From NCBI RefSeq assembly GCF_003337555.1, contig NZ_QPJK01000002.1, positions 248,001 through 312,000 on the forward strand: a DNA stretch of 64,000 nucleotides, given 5' to 3'. The notes under the pieces are model-generated. The model had not been told where the DNA came from, ran no database searches, and was given only the letters and a program-made list of their open reading frames with translations. Source of the DNA: Pseudorhodoferax soli (lineage in GTDB: Bacteria; Pseudomonadota; Gammaproteobacteria; Burkholderiales; Burkholderiaceae_C). This document shows positions 50,589 to 55,700 of the stretch, in pieces. Position 1 is the first letter of the stretch; the number at the start of each line of letters is the position of its first letter. The position numbers and the translations under genes were made by a program.

Positions 50589-50822
50589 TTCAGATCCGGT
50601 ACACCCTCGCTGCGGTGTCATGGAACATGGCGTGCTGCTCCCCCTCCGAATACCTCGCCGCGATCTTCTTCATCGCGTTCCAGTAGCTCACGTAAGGCAG
50701 CGAGCGCCGGTCCATCGGGAAGTTGCTTTCGAACATGCAGCGCTGCGGACCGAAGCACTCGATGGTGTGCCGGTAGCAGCGCCCCTGGGCCTCGGCCAGT
50801 TCGCCTGACCGGGCGGGCAGCG
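50589..50822. repeat. 234-bp direct repeat, left copy (decayed)
   Basis: Aligns without a gap to 55467-55700 (shift 4878 bp) with about a dozen mismatches by eye. The match stops 1 bp past the amidohydrolase stop codon and, at the other side, 16 bp before the livJ-like stop. The two copies enclose the whole liv importer. Confidence 0.92.
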
Positions 50823-50823
50823 C
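50590..50823 (-). pseudogene. Decayed 3' fragment of the amidohydrolase gene
   Basis: This holds the last ~77 codons of the amidohydrolase at 55,468, still in frame to the same TGA (ending HDTAARVYRI). It has no start and nothing of the N-terminal 260 residues. About half of the base differences change the amino acid (for example Gly to Arg before YSEGEQH, Tyr to Cys before RHTIECF, Val to Met before DRRS). This pattern is expected of a gene no longer under selection. It lies 15 bp after the substrate-binding protein gene on the same strand. Confidence 0.88.
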
Positions 50824-50838
50824 CGTGCCGGCAGGCGC

Positions 50839-51996
50839 CTACTTCAGCGAGTTCAGCATGACTTCCCGGATCTTGCCGTCTTCCACTACGGCGGCCCGGC
50901 CGTCAGCCTCCGAGCTACCTGTGGCGTCGACGCCGGACACCCCGAACATGTTCTCCCTGCGCGGCATGGTCTTGAAGGCCTCGTTGAGCTTGGCGCGGAT
51001 GGCCGTGGCGTCGGTCACGCTGCCGGCCAGCTTCATGGCCAGGGCGGTGGCATGGACGGCGCTGTAGTTCAGGGAGGTCTCCGAGGTCACGAGCCGGTTC
51101 GGGTACAGCTTCTGGAAGCGCTGCACGAAGGCGACCGACTCGGGCAGCTTGTCTTCCATCACAGGCAGCACGCCGATGGCGCCGTTGAGCGAGCCATAGC
51201 CTCCGCTGACCTTGGCGACCTCGTCCAGCTTGGCCTGATCGATCAGGATGAAGCCGCCCTTGAAGCCGAGCTCGCGCGCCTGCTTGACGACCAGACCGGT
51301 CGGCTCCGAAGGCCCGCCGATGAACATCACGTCGGGCTTGCCCGCCAGTGCGCGGCTGACCCCGCTGTAGAAGTCCGTCGCCCGGGTGTAGCTCATGGGG
51401 TTGTCGGCGACGACCTTGCCGCCGGCCTTCTCGAGCAGGGGCTTGAACGCGGCGTTCCAGGCCTTGGCGTAGTCATGGTCGGCATCGGCGATGGCCACGT
51501 TCTTGCCGAACTTCTTCGTCGTGTAGTTGATGAACGGCTCGATGTAGGAGGTGAAGTCCGGCGGAATCCGCAAGGTCAGCTTGTTGCCGCGTGCGGTGAT
51601 CTGCGGTGTGCTGCTATAGGCCAGCACCAGGTACTTCTGCGCTTCGTTGTTGGTCTGCAGGGCATAGATGCCGCCCGAGTGCGGCACGAGAACGGCCGGC
51701 GTCTTGCTCTCCTGCACGAGGCGTTGTGCGTTGATGGCGGTCTCCGACGGGTTGTACTTGTCGTCCAGCGCGGCGATCTCCAGCTTGTACTTCTTGCCGG
51801 CGACCTCGAACCCTGCAGCATTGATTTCGTCCACGGCCATGTTCATGCCGTCCAGCACGTTCTTGCCGTACAGGGCGGCGCCGCCGCTCAAAGGGCCTGA
51901 AAAGCCGATCTTCACGACCTCCTGCGCCATTGCAGGGGCGGTGAGCACCAGCCCGGCGGCGAGTGCGGTGGCAAGACGGTTCGGTTGCAAACGCAT
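50839..51996 (-). CDS. livJ: Branched-chain-amino-acid-type ABC transporter substrate-binding protein
   Basis: A 385-residue periplasmic binding protein (Leu/Ile/Val or amide type). A signal peptide (about 1-24, ending APAMAQE) precedes the two-lobed domain with VVKIGFSGPLSGGAALYGKN and the PHSGGIYALQTNN segment. Ligands of this family include branched-chain amino acids, amides and aromatic acids; the true ligand is unknown. It is the last intact gene of the liv set, 32 bp after livF. Symbol given by family. Confidence 0.9.
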   Translation of the reverse strand: MRLQPNRLATALAAGLVLTAPAMAQEVVKIGFSGPLSGGAALYGKNVLDGMNMAVDEINAAGFEVAGKKYKLEIAALDDKYNPSETAINAQRLVQESKTPAVLVPHSGGIYALQTNNEAQKYLVLAYSSTPQITARGNKLTLRIPPDFTSYIEPFINYTTKKFGKNVAIADADHDYAKAWNAAFKPLLEKAGGKVVADNPMSYTRATDFYSGVSRALAGKPDVMFIGGPSEPTGLVVKQARELGFKGGFILIDQAKLDEVAKVSGGYGSLNGAIGVLPVMEDKLPESVAFVQRFQKLYPNRLVTSETSLNYSAVHATALAMKLAGSVTDATAIRAKLNEAFKTMPRRENMFGVSGVDATGSSEADGRAAVVEDGKIREVMLNSLK

Positions 51997-52028
51997 GGCA
52001 GTCTCCTTCGTGTGTAAAAAATAAACGC

Positions 52029-53517: not shown

Positions 53518-54517
53518 GGCGGTTCCCTCCAACCGTTGCGCTGGGTGGACTGGGTGCGCGTGGCGCGCGCTGTGCCGCGGCCCGGCGCACGCGCCAGGCC
53601 AGGAAGCTCCCAACGATGCCGTGCGGCACGAAGATCACCAGCAGGATGAGGATCGGCCCGAACACGATGAAGCGGTACTCCTGCAGGAACTGCAGGTACT
53701 GCGCGAGCCAGGGCATCATGATGGCGCCGACCAGCGGCCCGAGCAGGGTGCCCAGGCCGCCGACGATCATGGACACCGTCATGTCGAAGGTGGTCTCCAC
53801 GCCCGCCAGGCCCGGGCCGAGGAAGCGCACGAAGCCGGCGTAGAGCCCGCCGGCCATGCCCGCGTAGAACACCGACAGCATGAAGGCCAGCAGCTTGGTG
53901 CGCATCGGGTTGATGCCGATCGACTCGGCCAGGGCGTCGCTGTTGCGGATGGCCATGAACGAGCGTCCGAGCAGCGAGCGCGTGATGCGGTGCATCAGCC
54001 AGACACCCACCACGAGCACGGCGAACACGAGGTAGTACAGCGACAGCGGCGTCTCGAAGCGCAGCGGGCCGATCGGCGACGGCACCGGGATGCCGATGAT
54101 GCCGACCGGGCCGTGCGTCAGGCTGTCCCACTTCTCGATGACGAGGAACATGATGTAGCCCACCGACATCGTGAAGATCGAGAAGAAGTGCCCCTTCAGC
54201 CGCAGCGACACGATGCCGACGAAGAAGCCCAGCACGGTGGCGAAGACGCCCGACAGCGCAAAGGCGATCCAGAACGGCACCTGGTGGTCCACCGTCAGGA
54301 TGCCCACGGTGTAGGCACCGACCGCCATGAAGCCGCTGTGGGCCAGGTTGAACTGGCCCGTGTAGCCCACGATCAGGTTCAGGCCCAGGGTGGCCAGCGC
54401 GAAGATGTAGGCGGTCGACATCACCGTGAGGTGGTAGTCGTTGCGGGCCAGCAGGGGGAACGCCAGGCCGGCCGCGAACAGCACGGCCCAGCCGATGCGT
54501 GCAGCGCCCGGGCTCAT
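53510..54517 (-). CDS. livM: Branched-chain amino acid ABC permease LivM
   Basis: A 335-residue permease with about nine membrane helices. The GYTGQFNLAHSGFMAVGAYT segment and the SIGINPMRTKLLAF cytoplasmic loop that contacts the ATPase are LivM hallmarks. The C terminus adds an Ala/Pro/Arg-rich tail. Its ATG is fused to the livH stop (TGATG) and its own end overlaps livG. Confidence 0.93.
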   Translation of the reverse strand: MSPGAARIGWAVLFAAGLAFPLLARNDYHLTVMSTAYIFALATLGLNLIVGYTGQFNLAHSGFMAVGAYTVGILTVDHQVPFWIAFALSGVFATVLGFFVGIVSLRLKGHFFSIFTMSVGYIMFLVIEKWDSLTHGPVGIIGIPVPSPIGPLRFETPLSLYYLVFAVLVVGVWLMHRITRSLLGRSFMAIRNSDALAESIGINPMRTKLLAFMLSVFYAGMAGGLYAGFVRFLGPGLAGVETTFDMTVSMIVGGLGTLLGPLVGAIMMPWLAQYLQFLQEYRFIVFGPILILLVIFVPHGIVGSFLAWRVRRAAAQRAPRAPSPPSATVGGNRHA

Positions 54518-55380
54518 CAGTGCGCCCCCTTCGAGAAGATGCCCTGCGGACGCAGCGACAGGATCAGCACCAGGATGGCGAAGGCGATGATGTCCTTGTA
54601 GTCGGTCGAGATGTAGAAGGCGCCGAAGCTCTCGGCGAAGCCGATGATCAGGCCGCCGACGATGGCCCCCGGCACGCTGCCCATGCCGCCCAGGATGATG
54701 ATGACGAAGGCCTTGGTGATCACCAGGTTGCCCATGGCCGGAAAGACCAGGTTGATCGGCGCGAACAAGGCCGCCGCCACGGCCGCGAGCGCGCCCGAGA
54801 TCGCGAATGTCAGCATGGCGACGCGGTTGGCATCGATGCCCACCAGCGAGGCACCGTCGCGGTTCTGCGCCATGGCGACGATGGTCGAGCCCATGACCGT
54901 GCGCGTGAGGAACAGATGCAGTGCCAGCATCAATGCAAAGGCAGCACCGATGATCAGCAAGCGCTGCACCGGCGCCGTGACGCCGGCCACCTCGACCATG
55001 CCGCCATAGGGCGTCGGCATGCGGTGGAATTCAGCACCCCAGATGGCTTGCGCACCGGCCTCCAGGAACAGCAGCAGGCCGATGGCCGCGATCATGGGGT
55101 GCAGCCCGCTGGCGTTGCGCAAGGGGTGGAACACCAGGCGCTCGGCCAGCGTGGCCAGCACCGCCACGCACAGCGCGGCACCGGCCATGGCCACCCAGTA
55201 GTTCAGCCCCCACGCCACCATGAGGTGGAACGAGGCGAACGCACCCACCATGTAGAACGCGCCGTGCGCAAAGTTGGGCACACGCAGGATGCCGTAGACC
55301 AGCGTCAGCCCGAGTGCCACCAGGCTGTAGATGCCGCCCAGCGTCAGGCCGTTGAGAACCTGCTGAAAGAAAAGCTCCAT
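54517..55380 (-). CDS. livH: Branched-chain amino acid ABC permease LivH
   Basis: A 287-residue permease with about eight membrane helices. NGLTLGGIYSLVALGLTLV at the N terminus and the VGIDANRVAMLTFAISG coupling loop identify LivH. It is the first gene of the liv set, 87 bp after the amidohydrolase. Confidence 0.93.
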   Translation of the reverse strand: MELFFQQVLNGLTLGGIYSLVALGLTLVYGILRVPNFAHGAFYMVGAFASFHLMVAWGLNYWVAMAGAALCVAVLATLAERLVFHPLRNASGLHPMIAAIGLLLFLEAGAQAIWGAEFHRMPTPYGGMVEVAGVTAPVQRLLIIGAAFALMLALHLFLTRTVMGSTIVAMAQNRDGASLVGIDANRVAMLTFAISGALAAVAAALFAPINLVFPAMGNLVITKAFVIIILGGMGSVPGAIVGGLIIGFAESFGAFYISTDYKDIIAFAILVLILSLRPQGIFSKGAH

Positions 55381-55466
55381 CTCGTCTCCATTCTTTGAGG
55401 TGTGCGCCGCGCGTGCGGTCTGCGCAGCACGGCGTGAAGCGGTGGCTCCATGCCTGCGCTGCGAGG

Positions 55467-55700
55467 TTCAGATCCGGTACACCCTCGCTGCGGTGTCATG
55501 GAACATGGCGTGCTGCTCGCCCTCCGAATACCCCGCCGCGATCTTCTTCATCGCGTTCCAGTAGCTCACGTACGGCAGCGAGCGCCGGTCTACCGGGAAG
55601 TTGCTTTCGAACATGCAGCGCTGCGGACCGAAGCACTCGATGGTGTGCCGGTAGTAGCGTCCCTGGGCCTCGACCAGTTCGTCCGAATGGGCCGGCAGCG
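55467..55700. repeat. 234-bp direct repeat, right copy (inside the intact amidohydrolase)
   Basis: The partner of 50589-50822, same orientation. It covers the end of the intact amidohydrolase gene. Confidence 0.92.

What the first reader, a model, noticed from the sequence alone, without database searches (positions are those of the whole stretch)
50589..55700. The liv importer is bracketed by direct repeats of an amidohydrolase gene end
The 234 bp at 50589-50822 and at 55467-55700 are colinear, in the same orientation and differ at about a dozen bases. They contain exactly the last 77 codons of the amidohydrolase, one copy intact and one a decaying fragment. The five liv genes lie between. 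This is what remains after a tandem duplication of amidohydrolase plus importer followed by deletion, or after insertion of the importer by recombination at the amidohydrolase end. The similarity stops 1 bp after the stop codon on one side. Homologous recombination between the copies could still loop out the importer.
Basis: seen in the sequence. Interest (0 to 1): 0.7.

Follow-up and report, generated by a model that had tools for sequence, protein, structure and literature searches.

The report
Gene-end scar beside an inserted importer
A five-gene nutrient importer sits between an intact enzyme gene and a worn-down copy of that gene's end, which looks like an ordinary scar of metabolic genes having been inserted at this spot in some related bacteria and not in others.

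Summary
In detail: 50589-50822 and 55467-55700 are colinear direct repeats, 13 differences in 234 bp, no indel. They are the last 76 codons plus stop of a PF04909 amidohydrolase (AH).

Six genomes of the genus, the window's own (G000) included, explain much of it. G002 carries the locus without the importer: upstream genes, AH, then a FadB-like gene; G083, from another genus, also has AH directly after the same upstream genes. G000, G001 and G003 carry a 16.3-16.7 kb catabolic island ending in AH-livHMGFK. G003 has a decayed AH remnant just after livK that keeps a piece the window has lost. So a second AH copy behind the importer probably predates the G000/G003 split and decayed separately. 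In the window most of the fragment is still 97% like the intact gene, best read as gene conversion; a later re-duplication is not excluded.

Insertion at AH is supported. Tandem duplication of AH plus importer is not: no trace of a second liv was found. Loop-out is possible (61 bp identical run), but none of the six genomes shows its product. No tyrosine-integrase match lies within 130 kb on this contig. I file it as a new example of a known kind, of low interest.

The parts
55468..56484 (-). intact amidohydrolase (AH), 338 aa; its last 76 codons plus stop form the upstream repeat copy (55467-55700)
   Evidence: PF04909 E 1.2e-27 over residues 27-338; orthologues in 4 of 5 other genus genomes at 90-93% aa identity
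50589..50822 (-). 5'-truncated second copy of the AH 3' end (AH-prime), 13 mismatches to the intact copy, open frame
54517..55380 (-). livH-type permease
   Evidence: PF02653 E 1.3e-48
53510..54517 (-). livM-type permease
   Evidence: PF02653 E 9.8e-45
52723..53517 (-). livG-type ATPase (start chosen by reading)
   Evidence: PF00005 and PF12399; ORF
52029..52736 (-). livF-type ATPase (start chosen by reading)
   Evidence: PF00005; ORF
50839..51996 (-). livK-type periplasmic binding protein; its stop codon lies 16 bp from the fragment
   Evidence: PF13458 E 1.2e-45
56532..58937 (-). class III CoA-transferase directly upstream of AH in the island; start chosen by reading, searches used 56532-58790 (752 aa)
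   Evidence: PF02515, two matched stretches; same neighbour in G001 and G003, no match at E 1e-150 in G002, G004, G005
58948..60504 (-). carboxyltransferase-domain protein, island gene
   Evidence: PF01039; syntenic in G001 and G003
36968..50588 (.). 13.6 kb block (pirin, LysR, DUF2269, patatin, alpha-amylase-family gene, cydAB, alpha/beta hydrolase) between the AH fragment and the FadB-like gene; at this position in the window genome and not in G001, G002 or G003
   Evidence: synteny breaks at both edges; Pfam; cydAB by NCBIfam
34880..36967 (+). FadB-like multifunctional protein (named by reading its sequence, not run against a family library), conserved neighbour on the far side of the insertion
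   Evidence: 92-94% identical orthologues at the same locus in G001, G002, G003

Best explanation
The fragment is the surviving 3' end of a second amidohydrolase copy on the far side of livHMGFK. It is a scar of the event or events that built a 16.3-16.7 kb catabolic island at a locus whose ancestral order was upstream genes, AH, downstream genes. The most likely route, inferred and not shown, is recombination inside the 3' part of AH with incoming DNA that carried an AH 3' end joined to liv (single-crossover or one-sided integration). That leaves a complete AH in front of liv and the displaced 3' part behind it. The second copy was redundant and decayed separately in each lineage: the window keeps nt 777-1017, G003 keeps about nt 656-719 joined to 905-941, and G001 keeps nothing detectable. 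In the window lineage gene conversion from the intact gene, or a later re-duplication, kept the last roughly 190 bp near-identical. Shown: the locus without importer, the shared position of two remnants, no detectable second liv, and asymmetric decay. Inferred: the recombination route and the conversion.
For: Empty locus: in G002 the upstream block (88-91% identical to G000, G001, G003) ends 2-3 bp before the AH start, and AH is followed after 1.35 kb by the FadB-like gene, with no liv and no match to island DNA in that 1.35 kb. G083, another genus, also has the upstream block directly before AH. Island genomes G000, G001 and G003 share CoA-transferase-AH-livHMGFK in order. G003 has collinear AH pieces 49-140 bp after the livK stop (best E 2.5e-11; gapped score 141 against a maximum of 86 in 500 base shuffles). 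No match to liv in any of the three gaps; the window block's 7 other matches to island DNA are 29-57 bp and none lies in liv. The fragment groups with the window's own AH (bootstrap 94), and keeping it outside the genus AHs is rejected (AU p=0.027). Last 188 bp: 96.8% to own AH against 85-88% to the four congeneric AHs; first 46 bp: 84.8%, within the 80-87% seen to those four. Clustering of the 13 differences: permutation p=0.02. AH of the island genomes is interleaved with empty-locus AHs, so it looks native.
Against: Forced monophyly of the island AHs is disfavoured but not rejected (AU p=0.06), so an AH that arrived with the island stays possible. The donor's AH-liv junction is not explained. 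The conversion signal rests on 13 sites. G001 shows no remnant. G002 may have lost the island secondarily: it is 96-97% identical to G001 in the FadB-like gene and beyond, but 91% in AH. Only six genus genomes were available, one per species; G005 has AH in a partly different setting and G004 has no close AH.
Confidence: 0.52

Rival explanations
1. One insertion of the whole island, bringing its own AH, between the upstream genes and a resident full-length AH. The resident became redundant and decayed to the remnants seen after livK.
For: The left edge of the island lies between the upstream gene's stop codon and the AH start of the empty locus. It needs a single insertion and fits remnants that reach different parts of AH.
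Against: Island AHs do not form their own clade (not significant, AU p=0.06). Of 80 distant AH loci only two showed two or more of the queried non-AH genes, both weakly and without liv (loci with a single such hit were not printed). No AH piece before nt 656 was found after livK in the window or G003 at E 1e-3.
Confidence: 0.28
2. Tandem duplication of AH plus liv, then deletion of the second liv and most of the second AH.
For: Would give the same repeat pair and the order AH, liv, AH-prime.
Against: No match to liv beyond livK in any of the three genomes. Needs more steps.
Confidence: 0.07
3. Recent duplication of the AH 3' end in the window lineage only, unrelated to the old remnant in G003.
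For: The fragment is closer to the window's own AH than to any orthologue and shares 5 private bases with it.
Against: Needs two independent AH copies at the same spot behind livK in two species. Differences are concentrated at one edge.
Confidence: 0.11
4. Site-specific integration at the AH 3' end by an element carrying a replacement gene end, as in e14 and icd.
For: The architecture is alike: intact gene, insert, displaced 3' fragment with a dozen changes (passage in PMC11148124).
Against: The genes between the copies are the five liv genes. The two tyrosine-integrase matches on this contig lie over 130 kb away; serine integrases were not searched. The G003 remnant starts about 360 bp before the gene's stop.
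Confidence: 0.02

Closest known systems
Rhs C-terminal displacement (PMC2935791; abstract and section 10 read)
   Same: An intact gene upstream with partial, probably silent copies downstream that form direct repeats, some of them degenerated; the authors propose homologous recombination with circular intermediates.
   Different: In rhs the shared part is the core and the ends differ; here the shared part is the gene's 3' end and the insert is an importer operon, with one remnant and no array.
e14 prophage in icd of E. coli K-12 (passages of PMC11148124 seen)
   Same: Intact gene, insert, then a displaced 3' fragment; there 165 bp with 12 changes, here 234 bp with 13.
   Different: e14 is a prophage with a putative integrase; here only liv genes lie between the copies.
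Homology-facilitated illegitimate recombination (idea recalled; only a search listing was seen)
   Same: One homologous anchor with a second, non-homologous join would fit the two edges.
   Different: Not tested; no donor molecule identified.

Membership tests
Remnant of gene duplication at a genomic-island insertion | truncated direct-repeat copy of a gene flanking the insert | tested here: met
Remnant of gene duplication at a genomic-island insertion | empty site in relatives | tested here: met
   G002 and G083; secondary loss in G002 not excluded
Remnant of gene duplication at a genomic-island insertion | remnant at the same place in other carriers of the insert | tested here: inconclusive
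   present in G003, not found in G001: 1 of 2 other carriers
Site-specific integrative element (e14/icd type) | integrase gene within the element | tested here: not met
   genes between the copies are livHMGFK; PF00589 matches on contig C2 only at 159 kb and 688 kb, the repeats lying at 298-304 kb
Tandem duplication of AH plus liv | second liv copy or its remnant | tested here: not met
   no liv match beyond livK at E 0.01
liv-type (HAAT, name recalled) ABC importer | two permeases, two ATPases and one periplasmic binding protein together | tested here: met
   same order in 16 of 16 loci outside the genus
liv-type (HAAT, name recalled) ABC importer | transport of branched-chain amino acids | not testable with these tools
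   livK scores 73.6 against a cut-off of 477 for the amino-acid model; substrate unknown

The most novel reading that the evidence does not exclude
The AH end acts as a standing recombination landing pad: the importer is a cassette that natural populations load and unload at this gene end, and gene conversion between the copies keeps the repeat long enough for reversible loss.
Probability: 0.07. Interest if true: 0.45.

Novelty: new member of a known kind. Interest (0 to 1): 0.22.

Why it matters
It gives a clear example of how a transporter operon becomes joined to a catabolic gene: a locus without the importer, the assembled island, and two separately decaying copies of the junction gene are visible within one genus. 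It also warns that high identity of a repeat need not mean a recent duplication if copies can be converted. The kind of event is well known and the genes are ordinary.

Tried and rejected
Rejected: AH plus liv tandem duplication; integrase-driven integration; a plasmid source (AH protein matches in 53 plasmid records at E up to 1e-60, all under 60% identity; fragment DNA in 4 records at 70-75%); a structured RNA at the site (0 Rfam matches at gathering score in the window). One transposase-type family (PF13683) gave no match on the contigs that carry this locus in G000, G001, G002 and G003; other transposase families were not searched. The 13.6 kb block was not traced to a donor: 9,433 bp of it match scattered places in the genus, and its fadB-distal part gave only weak matches elsewhere apart from the AH piece. 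Searches on precedents were few, so I make no claim that this locus is absent from print.

Details against myself: the G005 and G083 rows were cut 6 bases off; one search repeats the tree with G005 right, and its G083 row lacks the last two codons. The Fisher p of 0.005 used a boundary chosen after looking, so I quote the permutation value 0.02. The more permissive alignment of the G003 remnant also strings together short matches further upstream in AH, from about nt 508; I do not count them. After the filing check I mended several numbers (island matches 29-57 bp, gene starts, edge distance) and, because loss in G002 and a whole-island origin now weigh more openly, moved the best explanation from 0.55 to 0.52 and three rivals up by 0.01.

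Full report
Observation. The two stretches are real direct repeats: 13 mismatches in 234 bp, no indel, spacing 4878. They hold the last 76 codons plus stop of the amidohydrolase (AH) at 55468-56484 on the minus strand (PF04909). In the 8.16 Mb genome the AH DNA gave 7 matches: itself, the fragment, and 5 of 29-72 bp (40 of 882 first-look candidates were scored). The longest identical run is 61 bp, at 50716-50776.

Which copy is decaying. Against five other AH genes (G001, G002, G003, G005, G083), 8 of the 13 differences are private to the fragment, 2 are private to the intact gene and 3 are ambiguous. Five of the 8 fall at codon positions 1 or 2; both intact-gene changes fall at position 3. 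This is what one expects of a constrained gene and an unconstrained relic. The frame of the fragment is still open.

Relatives. Six genomes of the genus are held, the window genome G000 included. AH orthologues at 90-93% aa identity occur in 4 of the 5 others (G001, G002, G003, G005). livK at 97-98% occurs in 2 of the 5 (G001, G003), and the class III CoA-transferase in the same 2. In a family draw of 399 genomes, livK matches at E up to 1e-150 were found in 19, AH matches at E up to 1e-140 in 7, and CoA-transferase matches at E up to 1e-150 in 3. In the 16 livK loci outside the genus the order livHMGFK is kept and no AH is found.

The locus without the importer. In G002 the upstream block, 88-91% identical to G000, G001 and G003, runs to 2-3 bp before the AH start. 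AH is followed by 1.35 kb and then the FadB-like gene in convergent orientation. In G083, another genus, the same upstream block directly precedes AH, and the FadB-like gene is not seen. G005 has AH without most of the upstream block and without the close FadB-like gene; G004 has no close AH. In G000, G001 and G003 the upstream block ends at its gene's stop codon and a 16.3-16.7 kb island follows. In G000 it includes a GntR regulator, parts of a dipeptide-type ABC importer, the carboxyltransferase-domain protein, the CoA-transferase, AH and livHMGFK; the DNA is colinear in G001 and G003. After livK the three differ: 1.2 kb in G001, 2.8 kb in G003, and in the window the AH fragment plus a 13.6 kb block.

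A second remnant. In G003, about 50 bp after the livK stop, AH nt 656-719 (81% to the window AH) are joined to AH nt 905-941. A gapped alignment of this stretch scores 141, against at most 86 in 500 base shuffles. It keeps nt 656-719, which the window has lost, and of the part the window keeps only nt 905-941. So a second AH copy of at least nt 656-1017 probably lay behind livK in a common ancestor. The G001 gap shows no match to the island at E 0.01. No gap matches liv; the window block's 7 other matches to island DNA are 29-57 bp and none lies in liv.

Age and conversion. At third codon positions the window differs from G001 and G003 by about as much in five other island genes (76-87% identity) as in AH (81-85%), liv (82-91%) and the FadB-like gene (79-81%), so the island does not look like a recent arrival in the window. 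Yet the fragment is nearest to the window's own AH: bootstrap 94, and keeping it outside the genus AHs is rejected at AU p=0.027. The last 188 bp are 96.8% identical to the intact copy while the first 46 bp are 84.8%, within the range of the congeneric AHs; the clustering has permutation p=0.02. An old copy partly overwritten by gene conversion fits; a later re-duplication is not excluded.

How it arose. AH of the island genomes is interleaved with that of genomes without the island (G003 groups with G002 and G005, bootstrap 88), and forced monophyly of island AHs has AU p=0.06. So AH in the island looks native, and liv most likely entered by recombination in the 3' part of AH. Arrival of a second AH with the whole island is the main rival. 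Both are inferences. The interleaving could itself come from recombination at the locus, and G002 could have lost the island: G001 and G002 are about 96-97% identical in the FadB-like gene and beyond it, but about 91% in AH and, on average, in the upstream block. The 1.35 kb behind AH in G002 holds no match to island DNA, so no scar of such a loss is visible.

Known relatives of the pattern. e14 in icd leaves a 165 bp displaced gene end with 12 changes (passage seen), but e14 is a prophage with a putative integrase, and the two tyrosine-integrase matches on this contig are over 130 kb away. Rhs tip displacement leaves partial gene copies downstream, with homologous recombination proposed (abstract and one section read). 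This case resembles both in outcome and is a member of neither.

Verdict. It is an ordinary, well-preserved insertion scar.

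Noticed in passing
window 36968-50588: 13.6 kb block placed between the AH fragment and the FadB-like gene in the window genome; G001, G002 and G003 have other, shorter DNA there, so the spot differs in all four genomes compared.
   Followed up: partly
window 36967-37380 (-): A stretch weakly resembling the middle of an NADPH-dependent F420 reductase (TIGR01915, E 0.006, far under its cut-off) abuts the FadB-like gene: possibly another truncated gene at the other edge of the block.
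   Followed up: partly
L017 (G001) against L018 (G002): G001 and G002 are 96-97% identical in the FadB-like gene and beyond but about 91% in AH: one of them probably exchanged this region by recombination.
   Followed up: no
window 56532-58937 (-): The class III CoA-transferase is about twice the length of the Pfam domain, with two matched stretches of PF02515.
   Followed up: no
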